A stretch of DNA of 45,679 nucleotides from NCBI GenBank assembly GCA_016783605.1, contig JADHWG010000008.1, forward strand, positions 1-45,679, given 5' to 3'. This stretch comes from Candidatus Omnitrophota bacterium. Lineage in GTDB: Bacteria > Omnitrophota > Gorgyraeia > Tantalellales > Tantalellaceae. A model generated the notes under the pieces. That model saw only the letters and a program-made list of their open reading frames with translations, was not told the origin of the DNA and did no database searches. Positions 195 through 45,571 of this stretch are shown here, piece after piece. The position numbers were made by a program, and so were the translations under genes. Numbering within the stretch: the stretch's first letter is position 1; each line of letters opens with the position of its first letter.

Positions 195-2822
195 TTACGC
201 TCTTATCCACGCTTCTTTCGCGTGTTCATAGATCTTTGTTTGTTCGTTAACATTTACAGGCATGATCGGGAGGAGTTTTATTAATTTGTTGAGCGCACTC
301 ACCAGAGTATTGATGGGACCTCTTGCTATGCTGATAAGATCGCTCTCCGTCAAATCAAAACTGTCGGCGTCATATCCGCCGGATATGTACAATTTTTTAA
401 GTTCCATTAAAAGATCGGAAACGAATGGACTGTTTCTCGTGTACTTTTTGTTGGCGGCAATTTCAGTTAAAATCATTCCGAAAAATATGCTTCTGGCGAG
501 TCCCGTCTGGTCGTAGTTGTGTCCTACCGGCGAGATTATGGTGTCCAACAACGGATTAACAAATCCTTCGTCACCAAAATAGCGCAGTTTATCCCATTTC
601 GAGTTGTTTAAATTAGCCGAGAATTCTTCCCCTTTGTGTACAAAAAAAATCGTAACCGTGTTTGCCCTGGACATAACAAAATCTTTTGGTAAACTTTCTT
701 TTTTGATACCGAATTTTTCATACTCCTCGGCATCGACTTCCATATACGTTTCAGTTGAAAGAAACTCCACATAAACTTTTCCTAAACTGCTATTTTCTTT
801 CTTGAGTGCTCTTAACAACACCCCGGCGTCTTTTTTGCCGATGCGTTCAAGTATTTCAACAGGCACCCTGACAAGTTTGCTTGTCTTTTGTTTCTTTTTT
901 ATCCCGCCCAAACACGCGGCAGAGGAGTCAATAAAAGAACGAATTCCTTCGGTCATCCCGAGCGACGCGGCATTGTCTTCGGCCGAGTCAATTTCTTTCG
1001 CCACGCGCGCTTTTGCTTTACTTAAAGACAGAACCTCCATGGGAGCATCTTTTTTTGCTGAGCGGCAAAGAGCACCAAGTTTTGAAACAAAGTTTGTGTT
1101 ACTATTCGGACCGAATATTTTCTCGTATTGCGCGTCAAAAGAACTGCCGGAAAAATAGTTTTTGGGGATATTAACCCAAAGCGCCTCGGGAAAACTTTCA
1201 TTCATTTTGACAACCACAGGCACGCCGTTAAATATGAGCGCACCGTATGGGGCGTAATCCTGTTCTTTTCCTTTTTCTGCCAAAGCTTTTTCTATAGCTA
1301 CCAGCTCTGTTTCATCATATTCCGAATCAAAAAGTTTTGCCTGCTTCGCGGTTACCGGAAAAGAAAAGTCGTCAAATCCTTCCAATCCGTATCCGCCGAT
1401 GTCTATCATATAATCCCGCCAACCCGGCGCGGAAAAACATCTCTCCCCTTCCCTTACCAAATGGCAGACAACCTTAACTATTTGCCCTTTCGTATCATAC
1501 TTTGCATTGACCTGGATATACACTCCGTGATTTATTTTTTTAGCATCCGCTAGTCCCACCAATTTTCCGTTCATTTTCTTGACCTGAAGATGCCCCGGTC
1601 CCGTGCTCGCGGGCTGAAAAGAACTCGGGAGCATAGCATTTACAAAAAGCGTTTTATGCGGATTACTTAATCCGTCTTCTGTAATATGCTTTCTTGCGTC
1701 ATGGCTGACCTTCCTTCCTCCGTGAAGCATTACATACTGAACCAGTTTTTTCTCTAACTTCAAAAAACGCCGCATATTCCAGATCGCAAATTCCATAATG
1801 TTTTCCGGGCGGATCTTAGAAACACCTTCGATCCCTCTCCCATATAATCCTGCATCTGTCTCTTCTTTGACCTCTTTTATGCCATCAGGAAGCGTACGGA
1901 CATCTATAAAACTTTCTCCGCGCTTTTTGTTCCACACCATATTATCTTTGTCTGCGGTAAATCTAACTCCTTTCGGAATTATCCATATCTGTCCCGCCAT
2001 TTTCTGCACCGCTTCGGCAACCTCAATATCCTCATCACTATCTCCGGAAAATTCAACAATGCCTTTGATCAATTCGCTGGTAAAATCCCTGACAGTTTCT
2101 TTCTTCTTCTCGTCTTTTTCAAGCGCGTCCAACAATTTATTAAGTATCCCCGCCGGAACATCCAAATTCTCTTTTTTTGCCTGAAACACTTCTGTCGTAA
2201 AAAATTGTTTTATGGCTTCGGGAACTTTTTCTTCCAAAACCAACCTGGATATTGTATATGCAGAAAATACTTTAGGATCCCACAATTTGATGAATTCTCG
2301 TACCTTTCCGGGTTCTGAACTTTTTTTGTTTTCCATCATTTTGTCCTCTATTTTTTCAATTAAAAATTCGTATTTCTCCACTTGTTGCCAACCGCTTTCG
2401 GTTCGTCCCTCTTTAATTTTTCGAATTCTTATCCTTTGAAGAAACTTCTTCCCATGAAACACTATCCCGATCTCTCCATCTTTCGAACTATCTCCGTTAA
2501 TATCGGTTATATCCCCATCCAATAATTCCTGAGGCAAATCTTTGATCTTTTTCGATAAGGTTTCACAAAATTTATCCGAAGAGCCTCCTTTCAAAAAATA
2601 TTCGCCTATGCTGAAAAAAAGATTTAATCTCTTAGCCTCATTCTCAACATCCTGTATGTCATCCTGAAAAGGTTCTGTGGAAAAATTCTTATCTCCGGTA
2701 AATTTCGGAGCGGCCAAATTATCCGTAAAGGAATCCGCCACACACGAAACAGTATTAAAGAGAAACACAACCCCAAAAAGAACGCTCACCACTTTCATCG
2801 ACACCCCTTGCCTTTTCCGCAT
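195..2822 (-). CDS. Orphan secreted protein, 875 aa
   Basis: I do not recognise a family. Residues 1-30 form a basic start, a hydrophobic stretch (VVSVLFGVVFLF) and NTVSC, so it is a Sec signal peptide and perhaps a lipoprotein, although the lipobox is poor at -3. The rest is hydrophilic with no further membrane segment, suggesting a periplasmic or surface protein. A short motif PKFTG follows the signal (residues 39-43) and recurs at residues 241-245 of the giant protein at 18371-23956, the only link seen. The first ATG is preceded by a strong GGGAGGAG about 10 bases upstream. A second ATG at 2798 has AAGGGG upstream and would give a shorter signal peptide. The gene stands alone between a mobile-type repeat and a REP pair. 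Function unknown; the reading frame itself is secure because of its length. Confidence 0.8.
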   Translation of the reverse strand: MRKRQGVSMKVVSVLFGVVFLFNTVSCVADSFTDNLAAPKFTGDKNFSTEPFQDDIQDVENEAKRLNLFFSIGEYFLKGGSSDKFCETLSKKIKDLPQELLDGDITDINGDSSKDGEIGIVFHGKKFLQRIRIRKIKEGRTESGWQQVEKYEFLIEKIEDKMMENKKSSEPGKVREFIKLWDPKVFSAYTISRLVLEEKVPEAIKQFFTTEVFQAKKENLDVPAGILNKLLDALEKDEKKKETVRDFTSELIKGIVEFSGDSDEDIEVAEAVQKMAGQIWIIPKGVRFTADKDNMVWNKKRGESFIDVRTLPDGIKEVKEETDAGLYGRGIEGVSKIRPENIMEFAIWNMRRFLKLEKKLVQYVMLHGGRKVSHDARKHITEDGLSNPHKTLFVNAMLPSSFQPASTGPGHLQVKKMNGKLVGLADAKKINHGVYIQVNAKYDTKGQIVKVVCHLVREGERCFSAPGWRDYMIDIGGYGLEGFDDFSFPVTAKQAKLFDSEYDETELVAIEKALAEKGKEQDYAPYGALIFNGVPVVVKMNESFPEALWVNIPKNYFSGSSFDAQYEKIFGPNSNTNFVSKLGALCRSAKKDAPMEVLSLSKAKARVAKEIDSAEDNAASLGMTEGIRSFIDSSAACLGGIKKKQKTSKLVRVPVEILERIGKKDAGVLLRALKKENSSLGKVYVEFLSTETYMEVDAEEYEKFGIKKESLPKDFVMSRANTVTIFFVHKGEEFSANLNNSKWDKLRYFGDEGFVNPLLDTIISPVGHNYDQTGLARSIFFGMILTEIAANKKYTRNSPFVSDLLMELKKLYISGGYDADSFDLTESDLISIARGPINTLVSALNKLIKLLPIMPVNVNEQTKIYEHAKEAWIRA

Positions 2823-13076: not shown

Positions 13077-13081
13077 TGTAT

Positions 13082-13302
13082 ATTGTCACAATTCAGGTAA
13101 CAAATCGATAGCGACCGGGGCCACCCGACCATTTTGTCCCCTCTTCAATTAATCGGACAAGGCAGGCCTTGTCCCTACGAATAATATAAAACATGCCCAA
13201 CAAATCGTAGGGGCCGGGCCTGCCCGGCCCTTTTATCCCCATCATCATTGATAACCTGTATATGTCGGTGCCATTATAAACGGTTACCTCAATTGTGACA
13301 AT
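13082..13302. repeat. MITE-like element, copy 2 (complete)
   Basis: 221 bp bounded by ATTGTCACAATTCAGGTAAC (13082-13101) and its inverse GTTACCTCAATTGTGACAAT (13283-13302), one mismatch. Inside are an ACCGGGGCCACCC stem, GGACAAGGCAGGCCTTGTCC, and a GTAGGGGCCGGGCC palindrome. The length equals copy 3, and the shared 160 bases align without gaps with copy 1. No protein is encoded, so it needs a transposase supplied in trans. It has landed between pta and ackA. Confidence 0.9.
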
Positions 13303-13352
13303 ATACACCCTACGAATATCCATCAAACAACTTCGTAGGTTGTTTGATAAGG

Positions 13353-17912: not shown

Positions 17913-18143
17913 ATGTCAAAAGAGTGTTCAATTTGCGGGAAAAAACCTGTAAGCGGCAGATCCATCAGCCGCCGCGGTATGGCAAAAAGTAAAGGCGGAG
18001 TCGGACAAAGAGTGACCGGTTCCACATTGCGCCGCTTCGTCCCCAACATACAAACAACCCACACCATAATAGACGGCAAAAAGAAAAAGATCAAGATCTG
18101 CGCAAAATGCCTAAAAGCCGGCAAAGCCCAAAAAGTAAACTGA
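17913..18143 (+). CDS. rpmB: Ribosomal protein bL28
   Basis: Large-subunit ribosomal protein of 76 aa. It begins MSKECSICGKKPVSGRSISR and has CAKC near the C-terminus; together these give a four-cysteine zinc-binding version. The core (RFVPNIQTTHTIIDGKKKKI) is typical. AGAGGTGAG lies just before the ATG. The 3' part, from 17966 to the stop, and about 45 bases beyond are repeated directly at 24048-24272. The two coding stretches differ at only three positions, all silent. The gene looks intact and functional; its 3' end may have been replaced during integration of the DNA carrying the giant gene. Confidence 0.97.
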   Translation: MSKECSICGKKPVSGRSISRRGMAKSKGGVGQRVTGSTLRRFVPNIQTTHTIIDGKKKKIKICAKCLKAGKAQKVN

Positions 18144-18171
18144 TCCATATCAAATATCCCATAAATAAAAA

Positions 18172-18234
18172 ATTACCGCTATTCCACCTTGTAGGCGAAG
18201 CTCTATTCCACCTACGAGGTGGAATAGCGGTAAT
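18172..18234. repeat. Hairpin downstream of rpmB
   Basis: ATTACCGCTATTCCACCT (18172-18189) pairs perfectly with 18217-18234 around a 27-base loop that itself holds CTCTATTCCACCTACG. There is no T-run after the stem, so it is a weaker terminator than the homologous hairpin at 24252-24297. The CCACCTACGAGGTGG palindrome type recurs at 34335-34412. Confidence 0.6.
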
Positions 18235-18370: not shown

Positions 18371-21300
18371 TTAAGCCGCTTGTAACATTTTTTGCATTGT
18401 CGTGTGAAATCTATTGATCTTATTCACCAAATCTTTTACGATTGGTCGCAGAGCATATTCCTTTGCCCATATTATTTTGTTTCTCGAACATCCCATTACC
18501 ATAAATTTAAGGACATCTATACCGAAATCTTTATCCTTTCCAATAACTCCATAACGCTGGTAAATCCTTTTGATCCTATTTAAAAAAGTTTCTTTCGTAG
18601 AATTCTTTATCGCATCAAATTTCTTAAATTTATCTTTTTCTTGCGTTTCTTCAGCTACTGCCCTTAAAATTGCCTGCGCTATACCTATAGCCGCAGCTGC
18701 AGAATAATTTGGAATAGGAATGCCCGTTTTTTCAGGATCATCAGTGAGACTGACTACAAATTCCCAGTCATTTATTTCTTTATTCATTTTTCCGATATTT
18801 TCATCAGTTTTTAATATCACTTTTATCACATTGTCACCCGTAAAAGGGGCTCCTACAGTAGCAAGTAATTTTTCTTTGCTAACATTAAATCTCTCTGACA
18901 ACTCTTCAAGTTTGTTTCGAAGTAAAAATAGAGCTTCACTTTTATCGTTGTCATTTTCAAGAACATATCTGATTTTTAATCCATGAGATACATACCATGC
19001 AATTTTACAAGCGAGTGTTTCTACATTTTTGTCGAGTTGCTCTTTTTGTTGATCCTCTGACAGCATTCTATACGGTATTGCATCCAAGTCTATGTGCAGA
19101 TTAATAGAATATTTGTTGAGCTGTTTTTTCGCTCTTGTAATCACAAATTCCTCATCTTTGTTTTCCCTGAATAATCGCATCTTTTCTTGGGAGGTTAACA
19201 TAGGAGATATTAACTCTTTCTCGCTTGCGTCTAATTGTATGGATAAAGTATCTACGAGTTTTTCGTCATGCCAAAGTAGCCTTAGTTGCTGTAATGATTC
19301 TTGCAATTGAACAGACATGGTTTTTCCGTTTATGACGCGCCCCAAATGATAAGTATTTTTCCGTATTGTGATGGAAGTATTCGCGTAATCATAAATAAAT
19401 GAGTAAAGAGCGTCATTAAAATCCATATCAAAAACAGATTTTGGCACTTCTGTAAACGGTCCACCGCCACTTCGTCCTTCCCATTCGTCAACAAGTTTAA
19501 ACGGATAAACGTTAAACTCGCTATAAACACCATGAATACGGAGCAAAGAAGTAGCATAAAGCAATATCTGAAGTTTTTGTATCTCCTGCGGGCTAGCAGT
19601 AAGAATTTCACTTTTCTTTTGCATATGTTCTTCTATTGTAGTCATCCCTATGCTTGCCATTTCCGGCATACATATTTTATAACCTTGTTGGGTCAATCCT
19701 TCAACATCATCAAGCCAGTCCGTTGTTGATAGATAATTGTCGGGAAACTTAATCTTGATATTCTGAAAAAAATTATGAAGTAAAAAACTTAGCTCAGAAC
19801 GCTTGAATGGTTTTTTACTAAATATGTTGTGATCACTCCAAATATCTTCTGTAATTTGAAGTATTCTTATGCGTTCCTTATCCGAAACTATTCCCTCACC
19901 GAGAATCCCTACTTCCAGACCTAATTCATCCCTGAAAGAAGTATTAATTGGAGATCTTTCTCGATCGAAGTCATCCCTGTACGTTAGTTCCCTGATCCAA
20001 AATGACATGCCCTGAATCGATTTATCCCAATTTACATTCCCTTCTTTATCCAATACCGCGAATCTCTGCCCACCAACATAAACATTACCTCGTTTCATGG
20101 TTTGTGTCTCCGGATCAAAACCTAAATATTTAAAACCGCCTACTTCGGGTACATTAACAATATCACCCACAAAATCCGGATTATGTGGATGATACATCAG
20201 ATTTACTCCCTGCAATATCTGATAAACTAAATTTGCATCTTTGGTAATAATTTCAGTATAATTACCTTCACGCGGTGAAATCTCGCTAATAGCGGGCTCT
20301 AATGTCTCAGCCCCTTTCGGAAGTGAATAATCTACTCTCCAATTTGCAGAAGCATAAGTAACCCGAGAAGCACCATAATCACGTAACAGGCTTAAAGCGA
20401 CAATTGACAGCCCTTCTCCATGTTTTCCCACACTGCCTGTTGAGTCTCCTGTTTCCGTCTGTTTTCCCGAGTCTCCAACTGTCATGGCTTTTGTTAGATC
20501 ATATTCTCCCCACCCTGTAATACCAAGAGTGTACTCATTGTTTTGCGGATTCTTCATAACCGTATAACCGGTTCCCTCTAATGTTCCACTATGTCCATCA
20601 AAATTACCTTGATGTAAATCTCTCAAAGTTTTATTCAAATCCCATTCAATGCCGTAATCCCTATGTATCTGCCCTCTTCCCAAAAGGTTGTCAATATCTT
20701 CAGTTTTTTGCTTAAAGTTAAATTCCGGATTTATAGTGGTGCGTGTAGCCCAAATAAATCCTCTACCAAGCATCTTTTTAAAAGTTACTGACTTCGCGTC
20801 TTTAATGGAAACCGGTTGAGGTTTGGGATTATCAATATCAACAGGAATCTCTAAACAGAACGGACTGTTCAGTTCTGTGACATTTTTGAGACTAGGCAGT
20901 TCCAGTATTTTTTGTTTGGGAATACTCTTTGATGAATTAAGGCTTTCATAGACATGCGTATAGTCATCAGACTCTGATTCCTCGTAAAAAGTTACGTCAG
21001 TAGCGGCTAGAGCTTCCTGTAAAGCTTTTCTATCCTGGGACGCGGTCAAAACTTCTATAAGTGCATCTCGGAAATTTTTTATTACAACGCCAGAATTTAT
21101 CAACTCCATCAATGATTCTTCAATGTCGAGCCATTCATACGGATCTATATCATACGTCTTCAGCATAAGCTGATTGATATCATCAAACATTGATTTATAC
21201 GCTTCAGACCGTGTATCAATATCCTGCTCATCTGATATTAACATTTCCTGTGTTTTGGTTCCTTCTAAAGTTTGGCTCGGAACGCCCCCGATATGATAAG

Positions 21301-23956
21301 TTTTTCTTTGCTCTTCACTAACCTTTTCCCAAAGTAACACCAAATCTTCAAAGTCTCTTCTACAACCAGGGGAACAATCCCATGAGCGGGTGATAACTTT
21401 CCACAGCATCTGTTCTGACGGATATAAAGCACTCTCGTCGTCTAATCCATTTTCTGAAGATAATATCTTACGCAAAGTATTGTGCGGTGAACCATCCAGC
21501 ATCTCCCTGTTAATGTAAAAAGTTGATTTCCAATCATTCCTTGCCTGGCGAAAAGCCTCACCGTGAACATTATTCTTGCTCAGCGAATCAAAGAATTGTG
21601 CCGAATCTAAAAAACAAAACTTACTTAGTCTCTTTGCGAGTTTACTCTCATAATCATCCTCGGATCCTAATTCCTCCTGCAGTAAATCGATAGCTTCTTT
21701 AATGATTGCCAATTTTCGTAATTCGAATTCATTAACCGGTCGACCATGATCAGTTTTCTTCAATTTTTTGAAAGTAACAAGGGTCTCTGTTACAGTTGCG
21801 ATTTTCAGCTTACTTACGGAAGGAAAACAAACTTGGTATTCGGATGAACTAAGTTCTTCCAGTTTCTCTCTGCCATAAGCCATTATTCCTAATGGAGATG
21901 GAGAATTATAATGTTCATCTACTGCAATAAATTTTTTCTCTCCGAAATCAAGCTGTTTTCCTTCCTTATTAAGGCGCGTAGCAAGTATGGTCGTTAATTG
22001 CTCAATTAAAAAGTATATTCCCGTGTAAGAGCTATCCTTCCAGTTTTGTTCAAATAAAAGGAAGTTACTCCACACCGGTTCAAGCTCTCGTAAAACCCCC
22101 AAAAGCTCTTCCATGGAACTGGCTTCAAGAACACTCTTAACAGCAATTTTAAAACTGTCCTGATCTCGATCAAGACAAACTGGTGGACGTTCCCTATTTA
22201 GCATGTGGGGGGCAAAAGACTTCCTATACGTCCAAAAGGAAATACCCGGAACGCCGTTCTCCCAGGCCGGGACACTACGAGCATAAGAAGTTTGAAACCT
22301 AAGCCCTTGCAAGTACAGGTTGCCCTTGTTTAGTTCAGAGGTATGGTTGGAACCAAGATACTTAAACCCTCCTACGGTATTATCCAATGTTGGTGTTTGG
22401 AAATCCGGATTACAGGAATGATATACTAAATTTATTGCGGTTAACAAATTATAAATCAATTCAGGATCACTGGTAATTATCTCTGTGTAATTACCACCCC
22501 GATCTGAAACTTGATTTATTTCAGGATGTAAGGTTTCTTCCCCGGATCTGATGAAATAATTAACCTGCCAATTGCGAGAGGAATAGATTACTCTGGAAGC
22601 TCCGAAGTCTCTAAGCAACAATAGAGCCGCAACTTTTAAACCTTCTCCATGTTTACCTTGTGTTCCTTCTACTATTTCTCCCGACTCGGTCCTTTTCCCG
22701 GACGCACCCAAGGTAAGAGCTTTTGTCATGTCATATTCGCCATATCCCTCGATCCTGAGAATATACTCTCCAGATTCCTTTCTGGTTACAACGTAATTAA
22801 CTCCGTCGAGTGTTCCACAATGACCATCAGCATAGTTCTGGACACTCACATCACGTGCTGTCTTAATTATATCCCATTTAATTCCATAATTTTTATTGAT
22901 AGTTGCCCGCCCAATGAGTTGGTGTTTAACACTATCTGACATTTGATCAAAATCAAATTTTGGATCGGATTTTGTTCTGGTAGCAAATATCGTACCTTCT
23001 TTTGTTGGCACCTCCATAATCTCGAATTTAGCATTATTCGAAACTTCGGGCTTTGTCCTTTCTGTAGTCTCTTTTAGTGGTATCCGCTTCTCTATGGTAC
23101 CACTAAGGCTAATAAGATCCTTTAGTGATGGCAATTCAATTGTTTTGTCTTCTTCGGCAGGTATTGTAGTCGTAGCTGTAGAATTGTATTCAACTTTTTC
23201 TAATGACGCGTGTTCTTGTTCCCCTGTAAATTTCGGAACGTATGCACTAATGTTAGAAGTATCTAGCTTCATTCCATCAACTCTGGCAAGTTGCTGAGCT
23301 AAAACATCGATTAGTGAATCTAAAATTCTGCCACTTTCGGGCGCCTTAAGACTTTTCTTTACAGCTCTTAAAACATATTCCCAGATTGACGGAAGCTCAC
23401 CCGGATGCATTTGATGTAAAAATGATTCAAGTTTTTTCAGTTTTTGAAAAGATGGCAAAGTATTATCCATACACACCAAATCTTTCAATTTCGCGTATAC
23501 ATATGGCGACACTCTAACTATTTGCATATTTTCATCACTTTCTGATATTTCGAAAATCTTCCCCCTTTTTTTCAGCACCTTAAACTTTGCTTTTGTAACT
23601 TTGTCTTTTCTTTCTACGTCCCCGACAAACTCAATTCGTTCCTTGCCATTCATTTTTCCGGCAGCTTCGCGCAAATAACTATTCGCAACCATTGTCTCCG
23701 ATTCCTTACAAATGCCCTTACAAATGTGTTTTAGTCCCATTACCGCTTCAAGCACAATCTCCCAAGGATCTTCTATCCCTTCGTCCATCAAAGCTTGGCA
23801 TAAAAGCCACCTTGAAAGGGTATTGTCTTCCACGCCGATAACTACATTCTCTGATGATGCCAGAGATATCACAACAGTGTTAGTAACAAGTAGGCACGCT
23901 AATACCATGGCAACAACCCTTGTTGCTATCTTATGTTTACTCTTAAAAACATTCAT
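18371..23956 (-). CDS. Giant secreted protein with two GHKL-like ATPase modules, 1,861 aa
   Basis: A Sec signal peptide (residues 1-34; VAMVLACLLVTNTVVISLASS minus its last residues) starts the protein, and no other membrane segment is evident. Two homologous halves follow. Each has ELPSLK, ATRT, YGI(K/E)WD, then a GHKL (Hsp90/MutL/histidine-kinase) pattern: N-box-like WDIIKTARD (361-369) and WDLNKTLRD (1105-1113); G1-like IEGYGEYD (402) and ITGWGEYD (1146) leading into SGK; and GKHGEGL (434 and 1177). After each come GNYTEIIT, VGGFKYLG and KGN(L/V)Y. The usual N-box Asn is Thr, and the adenine-binding Asp of G1 is Ile in both, so ATP binding is doubtful. The long linkers and C-terminus (1500-1861) are unassigned. 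It has its own promoter and GGAG before the ATG. It is a monocistronic gene enclosed by direct copies of the rpmB 3' end. The GHKL call is by motif only. Confidence 0.75.
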   Translation of the reverse strand: MNVFKSKHKIATRVVAMVLACLLVTNTVVISLASSENVVIGVEDNTLSRWLLCQALMDEGIEDPWEIVLEAVMGLKHICKGICKESETMVANSYLREAAGKMNGKERIEFVGDVERKDKVTKAKFKVLKKRGKIFEISESDENMQIVRVSPYVYAKLKDLVCMDNTLPSFQKLKKLESFLHQMHPGELPSIWEYVLRAVKKSLKAPESGRILDSLIDVLAQQLARVDGMKLDTSNISAYVPKFTGEQEHASLEKVEYNSTATTTIPAEEDKTIELPSLKDLISLSGTIEKRIPLKETTERTKPEVSNNAKFEIMEVPTKEGTIFATRTKSDPKFDFDQMSDSVKHQLIGRATINKNYGIKWDIIKTARDVSVQNYADGHCGTLDGVNYVVTRKESGEYILRIEGYGEYDMTKALTLGASGKRTESGEIVEGTQGKHGEGLKVAALLLLRDFGASRVIYSSRNWQVNYFIRSGEETLHPEINQVSDRGGNYTEIITSDPELIYNLLTAINLVYHSCNPDFQTPTLDNTVGGFKYLGSNHTSELNKGNLYLQGLRFQTSYARSVPAWENGVPGISFWTYRKSFAPHMLNRERPPVCLDRDQDSFKIAVKSVLEASSMEELLGVLRELEPVWSNFLLFEQNWKDSSYTGIYFLIEQLTTILATRLNKEGKQLDFGEKKFIAVDEHYNSPSPLGIMAYGREKLEELSSSEYQVCFPSVSKLKIATVTETLVTFKKLKKTDHGRPVNEFELRKLAIIKEAIDLLQEELGSEDDYESKLAKRLSKFCFLDSAQFFDSLSKNNVHGEAFRQARNDWKSTFYINREMLDGSPHNTLRKILSSENGLDDESALYPSEQMLWKVITRSWDCSPGCRRDFEDLVLLWEKVSEEQRKTYHIGGVPSQTLEGTKTQEMLISDEQDIDTRSEAYKSMFDDINQLMLKTYDIDPYEWLDIEESLMELINSGVVIKNFRDALIEVLTASQDRKALQEALAATDVTFYEESESDDYTHVYESLNSSKSIPKQKILELPSLKNVTELNSPFCLEIPVDIDNPKPQPVSIKDAKSVTFKKMLGRGFIWATRTTINPEFNFKQKTEDIDNLLGRGQIHRDYGIEWDLNKTLRDLHQGNFDGHSGTLEGTGYTVMKNPQNNEYTLGITGWGEYDLTKAMTVGDSGKQTETGDSTGSVGKHGEGLSIVALSLLRDYGASRVTYASANWRVDYSLPKGAETLEPAISEISPREGNYTEIITKDANLVYQILQGVNLMYHPHNPDFVGDIVNVPEVGGFKYLGFDPETQTMKRGNVYVGGQRFAVLDKEGNVNWDKSIQGMSFWIRELTYRDDFDRERSPINTSFRDELGLEVGILGEGIVSDKERIRILQITEDIWSDHNIFSKKPFKRSELSFLLHNFFQNIKIKFPDNYLSTTDWLDDVEGLTQQGYKICMPEMASIGMTTIEEHMQKKSEILTASPQEIQKLQILLYATSLLRIHGVYSEFNVYPFKLVDEWEGRSGGGPFTEVPKSVFDMDFNDALYSFIYDYANTSITIRKNTYHLGRVINGKTMSVQLQESLQQLRLLWHDEKLVDTLSIQLDASEKELISPMLTSQEKMRLFRENKDEEFVITRAKKQLNKYSINLHIDLDAIPYRMLSEDQQKEQLDKNVETLACKIAWYVSHGLKIRYVLENDNDKSEALFLLRNKLEELSERFNVSKEKLLATVGAPFTGDNVIKVILKTDENIGKMNKEINDWEFVVSLTDDPEKTGIPIPNYSAAAAIGIAQAILRAVAEETQEKDKFKKFDAIKNSTKETFLNRIKRIYQRYGVIGKDKDFGIDVLKFMVMGCSRNKIIWAKEYALRPIVKDLVNKINRFHTTMQKMLQAA

Positions 23957-24047: not shown

Positions 24048-24225
24048 CAGCCGCCGCGGTATGGCAAAAAGTAAAGGCGGAGTCGGACAAAGAGTGACCG
24101 GTTCCACTCTGCGCCGTTTCGTCCCCAACATACAAACAACCCACACCATAATAGACGGCAAAAAGAAAAAGATCAAGATCTGCGCAAAATGCCTAAAAGC
24201 CGGCAAAGCCCAAAAAGTAAACTGA
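24048..24225 (+). pseudogene. rpmB: Displaced 3' end of rpmB (second copy, no start)
   Basis: These 178 bases repeat the rpmB coding sequence from 17966 to the stop, encoding SRRGMAKSKGG through KAQKVN. Only three bases differ, all third-position or otherwise silent (ACA/ACT, TTG/CTG, CGC/CGT). The copy lacks the first 18 codons and any ribosome-binding site. Homology continues past the stop to about 24272. The absence of amino-acid changes argues that the difference arose while both versions were under selection, for example in different genomes, rather than by decay in place. It is followed by a well-formed terminator. Confidence 0.92.
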
Positions 24226-24251
24226 TCCATATCAAATATCCAATAAATAAA

Positions 24252-24297
24252 AAATAACCGTTATTCCACCTACTCTGGTAGAATAGCGGTTATTTTT
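24252..24297 (+). terminator. Intrinsic terminator after the displaced rpmB end
   Basis: AAATAACCGTTATTC pairs with GAATAGCGGTTATTT (one wobble), with ACC/GGT at the top, and is followed by a short T-run. It is homologous to the hairpin at 18172-18234 but has a tighter loop and a U-tract, so this copy may be the ancestral rpmB terminator. Confidence 0.7.
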
Positions 24298-24469: not shown

Positions 24470-25030
24470 CTATTTTTTCTGTGCTCTCTTTTCTGATTTC
24501 GATATAATTTTGACTTTTTTGCTATCCACGTATTTATCAAAAATAACAAGATTGTTTTCTGTTCCGGTAATCGATGGCGATAAAATCCCTTCAAAGCCTA
24601 GTTGATAAGCTAATCGCGCGATGGCCCAGGTTAAGACCCAACCGCCATCTTTTTCTTCTGAAAGTAGTTCGGCTTTTTTAATTTTCAACTTTTTAAGGGT
24701 TTCGGGATCGGTTAAATCTAAAATCTTTCCGTAGGATACTTTTATTTTTCCCATAATTTGAGAAATTAGTAAAGAGTTTTTAGATTTTGTTTGCCGTTCC
24801 GCTTTACAAAGTTTTTCTGTTTCTCCAAGATATAAGGCGCCGAATTCACCATCGGGATTATAACGTCCGCCGTATGCAAAACTGCCTTGTGTACTCAAAA
24901 TTTCATCAACTCGTTTTGGAGAAACCAAACGAAAATACACACCAATAATCCGGGAAGGCTTAACTCCCCGGAGACTTTTTTGAAGAGATTCTTTTGTATG
25001 GTGTTCTTCCACTACGTCGCTATCCCCCAT
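24470..25030 (-). CDS. RES-domain toxin
   Basis: RES toxins degrade NAD+ in the cytoplasm and stop growth when the antitoxin is lost. The protein (186 aa) has VYFRLVSPKR (Arg34), FAYGGRYNPDGEFGALYLGE (Arg56, Tyr57, Glu70) and ILSPSITGTENN (the Ser of the R-E-S signature), matching the family active site. The ATG overlaps the antitoxin gene by 19 bases with no clear Shine-Dalgarno of its own, so translation is probably coupled to that of the antitoxin. Gene order (antitoxin first, then toxin) is the usual one. It is apparently complete and may be active. Confidence 0.9.
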   Translation of the reverse strand: MGDSDVVEEHHTKESLQKSLRGVKPSRIIGVYFRLVSPKRVDEILSTQGSFAYGGRYNPDGEFGALYLGETEKLCKAERQTKSKNSLLISQIMGKIKVSYGKILDLTDPETLKKLKIKKAELLSEEKDGGWVLTWAIARLAYQLGFEGILSPSITGTENNLVIFDKYVDSKKVKIISKSEKRAQKK

Positions 25031-25365
25031 TCAAGACGACCCAAGAGTCGTAAAACTTCCTGGACACCGGCAGGTCCTTGCTCTATTACTTCCAAGGGGG
25101 TTTTGTTTTCCAGAGCTTCGCTTGGTGTATTGAACCACTCTGTTTCTTTTCCCGGCTTTATTACACCATCCATTTTGTCTAAAATGTTTTGTAGCTCTTG
25201 AACTTTTTGTTTAGCCAAAAAATGGGGATCGGTTTCCTCTGCCTCCCAACGAGCCACGGTTCTTCCGGTTACGCCGATTATATGACCCATGATTTCCTGC
25301 GAACAACCGAATAGAGTCCTTACGAAATGAATCCTTTTATTTATCTGATGTGTTAGTGTAGACAT
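25012..25365 (-). CDS. Xre/MbcA/ParS-type antitoxin
   Basis: Partner antitoxin of the RES toxin. An N-terminal helix-turn-helix (FGCSQEIMGHIIGVTGRTVARWE) binds the promoter, and the C-terminal part (WFNTPSEALENKTPLEVIEQGPAGVQEVLRLLG, abbreviated) is the toxin-binding DUF2384-like region that caps the RES active site. The start is ATG 25365, preceded by AAAGGAGGTGACAAA; a frame extended to 25401 would overlap the -10 box. 117 aa. Likely autoregulated through a palindrome next to the -35. Confidence 0.9.
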   Translation of the reverse strand: MSTLTHQINKRIHFVRTLFGCSQEIMGHIIGVTGRTVARWEAEETDPHFLAKQKVQELQNILDKMDGVIKPGKETEWFNTPSEALENKTPLEVIEQGPAGVQEVLRLLGRLEWGIAT

Positions 25366-25391
25366 TTTGTCACCTCCTTTTTCCCACTTAA

Positions 25392-25431
25392 AGGATATCA
25401 CAGAATATGAACTATGTCAAGACATCTGTCT
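25392..25431 (-). promoter_or_regulatory. Promoter and possible operator of the RES-Xre operon
   Basis: On the minus strand TTGACA (25420-25415) and TATCCT (25397-25392) are 17 bases apart. AGACA and TGTCT form an interrupted inverted repeat (25420-25431) touching the -35, a plausible binding site for the Xre antitoxin. Promoter seen; operator inferred. Confidence 0.7.
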
Positions 25432-34899: not shown

Positions 34900-35014
34900 C
34901 ACCAACCTCCCACCACAACATATCGCAAAACCTAACTCTTTTAACCACATACATTTTACCACTTCAGTCAACCCATTGTAAAGATTTTTACCACGCCACA
35001 CTCGTAGGACGCAT

Positions 35015-35235
35015 ATTGTCACAATTCAGGCAACAAATCGATAGTGACCGGGACCACCCGACCATTTTGTCCCCTCGTCAATTAATCGGACAAGGCAGGC
35101 CTTGTCCCTACGAATAATATAAAACATGTCCAACAAATCGTAGGGGCCGGGCCTGCCCGGCCCTTTTATCCCCATCATCATTGATAACCTTTATATGTCG
35201 GTGCCATTATGGACGGTTACCTAAATTGTAACAAT
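35015..35235. repeat. MITE-like element, copy 3 (complete)
   Basis: 221 bp between ATTGTCACAATTCAGGCAAC (35015-35034) and GTTACCTAAATTGTAACAAT (35216-35235). The interior is nearly identical to copy 2. The left end is preceded by CGTAGGACGCAT, matching the extended terminal repeat seen on the right of other copies. It lies between queA and the response regulator gene. A GGGGCGGGTTTAGAACCAGC palindrome follows at about 35240-35268; no gene is present in this 406-base gap. Confidence 0.9.
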
Positions 35236-35305
35236 GTACAAGGGGCGGGTTTAGAACCAGCCCCTACGATTTAAACTCTCCGCGTTCAATTACCGATCTG
35301 CGGAA

Positions 35306-43735: not shown

Positions 43736-45571
43736 TCACGCCGAGATCAATGCCGCGGCAATCGTTCCGTAGGTGGGCGTATCATACGGTTCGGCAGGTC
43801 TGTAAGCTAGATAACCTTTGATCAATGTGTCGACAGTGCCATCAACAACAGCTTGTATATACTCTTCAACTTCGATATCCTCATTTAGATCAAAATGTGA
43901 TCTTATATAGAAACTCAAAGTACGATACACCGAGGATTCTTTTTTTACCTTGCCATCCATACGACGTACAGCAAACATAGTGGCATAGGTATCCAATTGA
44001 AATTGTTCCCTATTTGGATCATTACTATTTCTTGCTGCCAAAAGAACCGGCGTATTTGTTCTGACAAACCTTATTCCTTTGTCCGTAAGTATTTTGAGTT
44101 GATCAGCTGATAGATACTTGGGAACAAGCGCCACTGTTCTGTTAGGATCTTTAGTTTTTGACAGGATGTTGCCGATAAGTTGGTCAGATGTACTCCCGCT
44201 TATACTGTCAATCTCAAACCTGTCTTTGAATCTATTATCGTTTTGATGATTTCTGAGTTCCCCATCCTTAAAAAATCCTTCACAAAGCAAAAAGGTATAC
44301 CTTGTTTTTAAATGCGTCGGCATTTCTAAACCGGCTTTGGATGCGGTAGGTTCCATCTTTATTATTTCCGCTTCTTCTCTCGAAACCCTGGATTCGGGAG
44401 GAGAGGATATATAGCCCTTTAACGCATCCGGCATGGGCGTTCGAGGCGGTGTTGGGAACTTCTCGTTTTCTATTATCTTGCCCGTATCTTTCGCGTTTAG
44501 TAGCTCCACATACCGCGTGACCTGCTCTTCAACCACCTTATTAAGCTGAGCAAGCGTCTCTTTCGGTAAAGCCATCATATCCTTCTCAAGATCGATAAAC
44601 GACCATACACCTTCACCCTTATCATGCTGTTCTTTTGACGTACCTTTTCCTCTGGCTGTATGAACGATCCAGGCTACCTGCTCGCGCTGTTCGTCGCTGA
44701 GCGGCTTCCCATCTTCAATGGTTTTGTCTATTTCGCCCACTATGTCACCTATCATAACATTCGGAGTATAATCGTCTATCTGTTTGACCAAAAGTTTTGG
44801 GTTCCTTAGCCTTAAGAGGGCAAACAGCTTTGATACCAACTCCGTCGGAAATTCCGGATGGCTAAAGATCCTGTCATGGATGTAAGTAGCAAGATGAACC
44901 GCGATCGCTCCTCTTTTTACGGCTTCGGCAAGTTCTTCTTCGGAAATACTCGACGCGCCGTGCAATATGAGTCCGGCCAATCCATACATCCTGCATATGT
45001 CAGCCAGTTCCTCAAGGCGTTTCATGTTTACTACCGGATCACCTGTTCGCTTCCACGGTTTACCTTTTACTTTTACGCCTCCGTGTTTCGTACCAACCTG
45101 ACAGCTCATTGCTTCAAGGTCGTGGAACTTTACTGCCTCATTGTTCACAACTTGTTTCACTCGACTCATTTCCTCATCACTAAACCCGAAGATGCCATTG
45201 TTATCATCGATCCATTCCAATTGGGCATCCGGCTTAAGCGCCATAAATTCATCTAGTGTACTTCTGTAGCCAGCTAAATACGCTGTTAGTTCTTCAGTTG
45301 TCACCACTTCTGTCCCCACTTCGCCGACTTCACCGTTAAGAGCAATGCTCGGCAAACCGTATATATGTTCTAACAATCTGGCAAAAATGGTAAGCTTGAC
45401 AGCCGACTCAAAATTGGGTCTCTGCTGTTCTACGACACTACCATTTTCCTCAGGGGTCAGGGCCAACGTAGACGTATCCAGATCACTACTGTATATTTTT
45501 CCTTCGAGCGCATCCTTCCGAATCGTATCTGCCCTGCTTCCCCTATATCCTGAATAGAAAGAAGTAAACAA
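43736..45571 (-). CDS. Class II aldolase-like protein with long C-terminal tail, 5'-truncated
   Basis: Residues about 55-245 match the C-terminal two-thirds of class II fructose-bisphosphate aldolases: GEVGEVG (81-86, Glu ligand), VGTKHGG (His163, zinc), LILHGASSIS (His204, zinc) and AIAVHLAT. The N-terminal third, with the first zinc His and catalytic Asp, is missing. Residues 250-611 are unassigned, with PTPPRTPMPD near 370-380 as a linker. The open frame begins at a TTG with no ribosome-binding site or signal, and just upstream the frame runs into a TAA in an insertion-sequence-like end (about 45575 onward). I infer that an IS cut off the 5' part and that the remnant is probably not expressed. 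Confidence 0.65.
   Translation of the reverse strand: MFTSFYSGYRGSRADTIRKDALEGKIYSSDLDTSTLALTPEENGSVVEQQRPNFESAVKLTIFARLLEHIYGLPSIALNGEVGEVGTEVVTTEELTAYLAGYRSTLDEFMALKPDAQLEWIDDNNGIFGFSDEEMSRVKQVVNNEAVKFHDLEAMSCQVGTKHGGVKVKGKPWKRTGDPVVNMKRLEELADICRMYGLAGLILHGASSISEEELAEAVKRGAIAVHLATYIHDRIFSHPEFPTELVSKLFALLRLRNPKLLVKQIDDYTPNVMIGDIVGEIDKTIEDGKPLSDEQREQVAWIVHTARGKGTSKEQHDKGEGVWSFIDLEKDMMALPKETLAQLNKVVEEQVTRYVELLNAKDTGKIIENEKFPTPPRTPMPDALKGYISSPPESRVSREEAEIIKMEPTASKAGLEMPTHLKTRYTFLLCEGFFKDGELRNHQNDNRFKDRFEIDSISGSTSDQLIGNILSKTKDPNRTVALVPKYLSADQLKILTDKGIRFVRTNTPVLLAARNSNDPNREQFQLDTYATMFAVRRMDGKVKKESSVYRTLSFYIRSHFDLNEDIEVEEYIQAVVDGTVDTLIKGYLAYRPAEPYDTPTYGTIAAALISA

What the first reader, a model, noticed from the sequence alone, without database searches (positions are those of the whole stretch)
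18371..23956. Secreted 1,861-residue protein with tandem, degenerate GHKL-like modules
Two halves repeat the order (I/L)-x-K-T-x-R-D, G-(Y/W)-G-E-Y-D, S-G-K and G-K-H-G-E-G-L, about 743 residues apart. This matches the N, G1 and G2 boxes of the GHKL ATPase fold, but the Asn of the N-box and the adenine-binding Asp are replaced in both copies. A signal peptide sends the protein out of the cytoplasm, where ATP is scarce. A duplicated ATPase fold used extracellularly, perhaps as a scaffold or for another ligand, or as an effector delivered into another cell, would be unusual.
Basis: partly seen in the sequence, partly recalled or inferred. Interest (0 to 1): 0.8.

Follow-up and report, generated by a model that had tools for sequence, protein, structure and literature searches.

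The report
Exported protein with two GHKL domains
This gene encodes a large, probably exported bacterial protein in which two diverged copies of an ATP-clamp-like fold, related to an unstudied phage protein family, sit between conserved start and end pieces that sister proteins use to carry quite different enzymes, so it looks like one payload of a delivery format rather than a lone oddity.

Summary
The 1,861-codon ORF is on the minus strand. Its halves (269-760 and 1014-1473) are 36% identical (E 2e-86), with GKHGEGL at 434 and 1177. Both copies carry a diverged GHKL/Bergerat domain: PHROG family phrog_6077 matches at E 1.7e-10, profile-profile comparison with seven phage/plasmid members gives E 2e-8, and models of both copies have only GHKL proteins as top PDB folds. 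The adenine-binding Asp is missing in both copies, but also in 86 of 86 phage/plasmid relatives.

The wider finding is a chassis. The signal-peptide N-module and the C-terminal domain (no Pfam match) recur in at least eleven other large ORFs of related genomes with unrelated middles: SNF2 and SF1 helicases, methyltransferases, kinases, GNAT, HD. The gene is an insertion between rpmB and recJ, bounded by a 224-bp direct repeat; two relatives show the site nearly empty. Best reading: a payload protein exported from the cell, possibly into prey. Export is inferred; delivery is untested.

The parts
18371..23956 (-). 1,861-aa exported tandem-GHKL protein (whole gene, with stop codon)
   Evidence: single match in own genome
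23852..23956 (-). signal-peptide-like N-terminus, residues 1-35 (K/R-rich n-region, hydrophobic core, candidate SLA|SS site)
   Evidence: no signal-peptide predictor available
23531..23956 (-). conserved N-terminal chassis module, residues 1-142
   Evidence: A8; 14 of 19 genomes of the family; pairs with the C-module in 12 ORFs
21677..23152 (-). internal repeat 1, residues 269-760
   Evidence: blastp of halves, 36% identity, E 2e-86
22487..22909 (-). GHKL module 1 core, residues 350-490
   Evidence: phrog_6077, hhalign, model plus Foldseek
22826..22864 (-). N-box copy 1, K365-D377: KTARDVSVQNYAD (Glu to Asp369; Asn374 kept at spacing 5)
22730..22753 (-). G1 box copy 1, I402-D409: IEGYGEYD (adenine Asp absent)
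22637..22657 (-). G2 box copy 1, residues 434-440 GKHGEGL
19538..20917 (-). internal repeat 2, residues 1014-1473
20255..20677 (-). GHKL module 2 core, residues 1094-1234
   Evidence: second phage-HMM stretch, model pLDDT about 80-90 in core, Foldseek
20597..20632 (-). N-box copy 2, residues 1109-1120 KTLRDLHQGNFD
20498..20521 (-). G1 box copy 2, residues 1146-1153 ITGWGEYD (adenine Asp absent)
20408..20428 (-). G2 box copy 2, residues 1177-1183 GKHGEGL
22181..22198 (-). NRERPP, residues 587-592, equivalent of the family's (L/D)RDR motif in the domain after GHKL
   Evidence: A5
19949..19966 (-). DRERSP, residues 1331-1336, the copy 2 equivalent of that motif
   Evidence: A5
18374..19108 (-). 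conserved C-terminal chassis domain, residues about 1617-1861, ending at the C-terminus
   Evidence: A7/A10; no Pfam domain
17966..18189 (+). left copy of a 224-bp direct repeat (3' part of rpmB plus downstream)
   Evidence: 97% identity to 24048-24271
24048..24271 (+). right copy of the 224-bp direct repeat, with a 5'-truncated rpmB (24061-24225)
17913..18143 (+). complete rpmB (bL28), 76 aa; the relatives with a match list one copy each

Best explanation
The gene encodes an exported multi-domain protein built on a two-ended chassis: signal-peptide N-module, variable middle, about 254-aa C-terminal domain. Its variable middle is a tandem pair of diverged GHKL-fold units homologous to the phage/plasmid family phrog_6077. 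Proposed mechanism: the N-module sends it through the Sec pathway; the chassis and a further, unidentified route carry it out and possibly into a neighbouring cell. There the two GHKL units act as an intramolecular clamp that binds a nucleotide or related ligand and turns it over slowly or not at all. Shown by computation: the homology, predicted fold, duplication, shared ends with different middles, and insertion at rpmB-recJ. Inferred: Sec export, delivery into another cell, ligand binding and clamp action.
For: GHKL homology and fold. Duplication within the gene; the two copies are sisters with support 100/100. Chassis: N- and C-modules found together in 12 ORFs, the C-module at or within a few residues of the C-terminus each time, with middles matching SNF2, SF1, methyltransferase, GNAT, mTERF, cytidylate kinase, CoaE/CTP-transferase, HD, B12/radical-SAM and ABC1-kinase families. 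Payload motifs largely intact: ADEPGLGKT/DEAH, GPPGTGKT, GGTGSGKT, GPSGTGKS, HxDPHAGN. The own genome has a second chassis protein, with an SNF2 helicase, and two secretins. Accessory status: the gene lies in an insertion flanked by a 224-bp repeat, and relatives show recG-rpmB-recJ nearly contiguous.
Against: Export rests on a hydropathy scan and sequence reading; the window's cleavage site is less typical than the W-A|Y/H-P of its relatives. No secretion system, receptor or immunity gene is tied to it. In both copies the catalytic Glu is Asp, the G1 Asp is absent and the Asn spacing is +5, so nucleotide binding may be lost. No close homologue of the modules was found, so conservation of the motifs across species cannot be tested. 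Model confidence is low outside the GHKL core.
Confidence: 0.5

Rival explanations
1. Extracellular scaffold or adhesin: the GHKL units are dead folds, kept as structural modules of a surface or coat protein that binds another ligand; nothing is delivered into another cell.
For: Catalytic Glu to Asp and no G1 Asp in either copy; very long branch (4.0 changes per column); giant extracellular and adhesin-like proteins are described in Omnitrophota (PMC10066038).
Against: G2 box, Arg-acid pair, Lys of SGK and the RER motif are retained in both copies; sister chassis proteins carry enzymes with largely intact motifs, which a coat would not need.
Confidence: 0.22
2. Periplasmic or cell-envelope protein acting in its own cell on a non-ATP ligand, anchored by the uncleaved N-terminal helix.
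For: Single N-terminal hydrophobic helix; an exported protein of similar plan exists in a second lineage (L024).
Against: SNF2 and SF1 helicases and cytidylate/dephospho-CoA kinases on the same chassis have no obvious envelope substrate.
Confidence: 0.15
3. Cytoplasmic protein with a misleading hydrophobic N-terminus; it works like the phage family inside its own cell.
For: Payload enzymes of the chassis need cytosolic cofactors; no direct export data.
Against: The hydrophobic N-terminus and the residues after it are a conserved module in related ORFs, often with an A-W-A|Y/H-P type site.
Confidence: 0.13

Closest known systems
phrog_6077, phage/plasmid 'histidine kinase-like ATPase' of unknown function (e.g. 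Serratia phage ChuuTotoro URC22155.1)
   Same: N-box helix R-(E/D)..QN, G2 box GxxGEG, LGxSxK motif and the following domain with a (L/D)R-(D/E)-R motif, in the same order
   Different: Phage proteins are mostly about 350-420 aa, single-copy, without the chassis; Glu is invariant there (86/86) but Asp here; the window copies have inserts
Exported tandem-GHKL proteins of another family of the same class (L024, 1,575 aa; L026/L027)
   Same: Signal-peptide-like start, two GHKL units, Glu to Asp in every copy
   Different: They keep D-x-G-x-G, end in an HExxH-like domain, lack the window's chassis modules and group apart in the tree
Hsp90, topoisomerase II and VI-B, MORC (GHKL superfamily)
   Same: Predicted fold
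   Different: No sequence match in Pfam above cut-off; G1 Asp absent; probably exported
Giant multidomain proteins of predatory Omnitrophota (PMC10066038; PMC12419801)
   Same: Very long ORFs, proposed prey-directed batteries of enzymes including methylases and peptidases
   Different: The shared N/C chassis and a GHKL payload are not mentioned in the passages read; the phylum of this window was not verified by a named record
Polyvalent proteins of phages and conjugative elements (PMC5512222)
   Same: Multi-domain proteins with SNF2, methylase, GNAT and peptidase units acting in another cell
   Different: Those travel with mobile-element DNA; here Sec-type N-termini and chromosomal context

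Membership tests
GHKL superfamily (fold) | Bergerat alpha/beta sandwich | tested here: met
   Prediction only: m2 model, core pLDDT about 80-90, the 50 PDB hits shown are all GHKL, E from 3e-5; m1 first 12 all GHKL, E 2e-3 and weaker
GHKL ATPase (active) | N-box E-x3-N | tested here: inconclusive
   Glu is Asp in both copies; Asn present at +5 instead of +4
GHKL ATPase (active) | G1 box D-x-G-x-G with adenine-binding Asp | tested here: not met
   IEGYG / ITGWG; also absent in 86/86 phage/plasmid relatives
GHKL ATPase (active) | G2 box G-x-x-G-x-G | tested here: met
   GKHGEGL in both copies
GHKL ATPase (active) | ATP binding or hydrolysis | not testable with these tools
   needs an assay
phrog_6077 family | profile match in both copies | tested here: met
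   E 1.7e-10 for the whole protein, two stretches; copy 1 alone 8.8e-8, copy 2 alone 0.018; shuffle control
phrog_6077 family | invariant R-E-x-x-Q-N-x-x-D | tested here: not met
   R and Q kept, Glu is Asp, spacing changed; so a diverged homologue, not a typical member
N/C chassis set (defined here) | N-module at the start and C-module at the C-terminus of one ORF | tested here: met
   (12 ORFs; the set was chosen by these modules, so the Fisher value is only descriptive)
Polymorphic toxins | variable C-terminal toxin with adjacent immunity gene | tested here: not met
   variable part is in the middle; neighbours are rpmB and a RES/Xre pair
Giant proteins of predatory Omnitrophota | host belongs to Omnitrophota | not testable with these tools

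The most novel reading that the evidence does not exclude
A previously undescribed export format: a fixed N-module and a fixed, unannotated C-terminal domain carry interchangeable cytosol-type enzymes (helicases, kinases, methyltransferases, and here a GHKL clamp pair) out of the cell and into prey or host cells, with the genes gained at hot spots such as rpmB-recJ.
Probability: 0.33. Interest if true: 0.85.

Novelty: new variant of a known kind. Interest (0 to 1): 0.6.

Why it matters
Giant ORFs of these bacteria are considered poorly conserved and hard to interpret (PMC10066038). A shared pair of end modules gives a handle to list such proteins and read off their payloads. It makes the question 'how do these bacteria act on other cells?' testable with two short constructs (N-module, C-module). 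It also links an unstudied phage/plasmid GHKL family, whose sampled members all lack the adenine-binding Asp, to a cellular export setting.

Tried and rejected
Reading the module as an ordinary Pfam HATPase: sub-threshold. PADLOC defence families: none. Close relatives of the modules in genome contigs (two scans), in viral contigs with A1 and in 384 genomes of the phylum: none convincing; the contig scans start from short back-translated patterns and do not prove absence. The PDB match to a designed TIM barrel: a 31-residue stretch, rejected as chance. Alignment A3, which misplaced the G1 box, was dropped for broader alignments. One shared origin with the other exported tandem-GHKL proteins (L024 type): not supported by the tree. 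Flanking repeats at other chassis genes: only a weak 45-bp pair at L190, none at the other loci tested. ATP/ADP translocase in own genome: no match, but the control rang nowhere.

Full report
Observation. The ORF of 1,861 codons lies on the minus strand at 18371-23956. Halves 269-760 and 1014-1473 align at 36% identity, E 2e-86; the cores are 46% identical. GKHGEGL occurs at 434 and 1177. A hydrophobic N-terminus follows a basic stretch, and no other membrane-like segment is seen.

What the repeated unit is. Pfam gives only a sub-threshold HATPase_c_3 hit. PHROG family phrog_6077, of unknown function, matches at E 1.7e-10 with two stretches. The profile-profile comparison of the two copies with seven phage and plasmid members gives probability 95%, E 2.1e-8. 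A phage-family HMM scores 38.4 bits on the protein; the best of 1,000 shuffles reaches 3.7. Homology extends past the GHKL core into a second domain with the pattern G-x-L-Y-V-x-G-L ... R-D-R, seen in the window as G-N-L-Y-L-Q-G-L ... R-E-R.

Motif register. Aligned with 86 phage/plasmid members, R-D369 and R-D1113 fall on the family's R-E, so the catalytic Glu is Asp. The Asn is at 374 (after Gln) in copy 1 and at 1118 in copy 2, both five residues after the Asp instead of four. In the models the N-box helix covers both residues. The G1 Asp is absent (I402, I1146 by strict spacing), but 0 of 86 relatives have it: 77 Ser, 8 Asn, 1 Thr. The exported proteins of another lineage (L024, L026, L027) keep D-x-G-x-G but also have Asp for Glu.

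Fold. Copy 1 with flanks: mean pLDDT 50, GHKL core roughly 75-85; the first 12 PDB hits are all GHKL, E 1.8e-3 and weaker. Copy 2, trimmed: pLDDT 65, core about 80-90; 106 hits at E below 1e-3, the 50 shown all GHKL. TM-scores are low (0.3-0.4 by query length) because part of each model is disordered. Both models used viral relatives as alignment rows, so they are not independent of the homology claim; searches are.

Kin. The two copies are sisters (100/100) on a branch of 4.0 changes per column; the L024-type copies form another group. This fits separate duplications. No close relative of the modules was found.

The chassis. Residues 1-142 and the C-terminal domain recur elsewhere. With iterated profiles, 12 ORFs carry both, N at the start and C ending at or within a few residues of the C-terminus. 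These ORFs were fetched because of one or the other module, so the association is partly by selection; but ten of the eleven ORFs found by the C-module with a complete 5' end also have the N-module (the window not counted). Exceptions to pairing are mostly cut by contig ends (L122, L124, L193, L201); L200 has the two modules on adjacent ORFs; L123 and L121 lack one. The middles hold SNF2 (own genome L195; L201), SF1 helicase (L199), methyltransferases (L190, L191), GNAT (L188, L190, L200), cytidylate kinase (L189), CoaE plus CTP-transferase (L194), HD (L197), B12/radical-SAM (L198), and ABC1 kinase (L123, L196). The NTP-binding motifs read are largely intact. The C-domain has no Pfam family and no convincing PDB match; it is in 13 of 19 genomes of the family, one to five matches each.

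Accessory gene. A 224-bp direct repeat, 97% identical, flanks the gene; it contains the 3' part of rpmB, complete on one side and truncated on the other. The relatives with a match list one rpmB each. In relatives the order is recG-rpmB-recJ, with rpmB and recJ about 170 and 340 bp apart in G001 and G010; G012 and G011 carry other genes there. G+C falls from about 0.44 to 0.35-0.41 across the gene. No integrase was seen in the insert.

How it may work. The payloads on this chassis need ATP or SAM, which argues for action in a cytoplasm; a Sec-type start argues for leaving the cell. Delivery into another cell would reconcile the two and fits the predatory or parasitic habit proposed for Omnitrophota (PMC10066038; PMC12419801). 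This step is inference, and the phylum was not confirmed by a named record. The GHKL pair would be a clamp with slow or no turnover, judged from Asp in place of Glu; this too is inference.

Verdict. Real feature, partly re-read: a diverged GHKL pair on an export chassis. My confidence in the identification of the fold and family is about 0.9; in export about 0.8; in delivery into other cells about 0.4.

Noticed in passing
24470-25401 (-): RES-domain toxin with Xre/MbcA/ParS antitoxin next to the insertion.
   Followed up: partly
1-172, 13080-13307, 35013-35240: Dispersed repeat of about 230 bp, 95% identical, three copies in the window.
   Followed up: no
195-2822 (-) and 43736-45571 (-): An 875-aa protein with a signal-peptide-like start and no significant Pfam match, and a 611-aa ORF near the contig end with a fructose-bisphosphate aldolase class II match; neither was matched by the chassis profiles.
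   Followed up: partly
L029:2-14389 (-): 4,796-aa ORF of a genome of the same family with a GHKL-like stretch (ELISNALDA ... IGRFGVGF) inside a protein with several membrane-like segments.
   Followed up: no
L038:1895-4771: 958-aa plasmid protein of Aneurinibacillus with at least two GHKL units of this family and a C-terminal HEQVH motif.
   Followed up: no
L206:5211-8681: Another ORF with a signal-peptide-like start (1,157 aa) sits at the same rpmB-recJ site in G012, suggesting a hot spot.
   Followed up: partly
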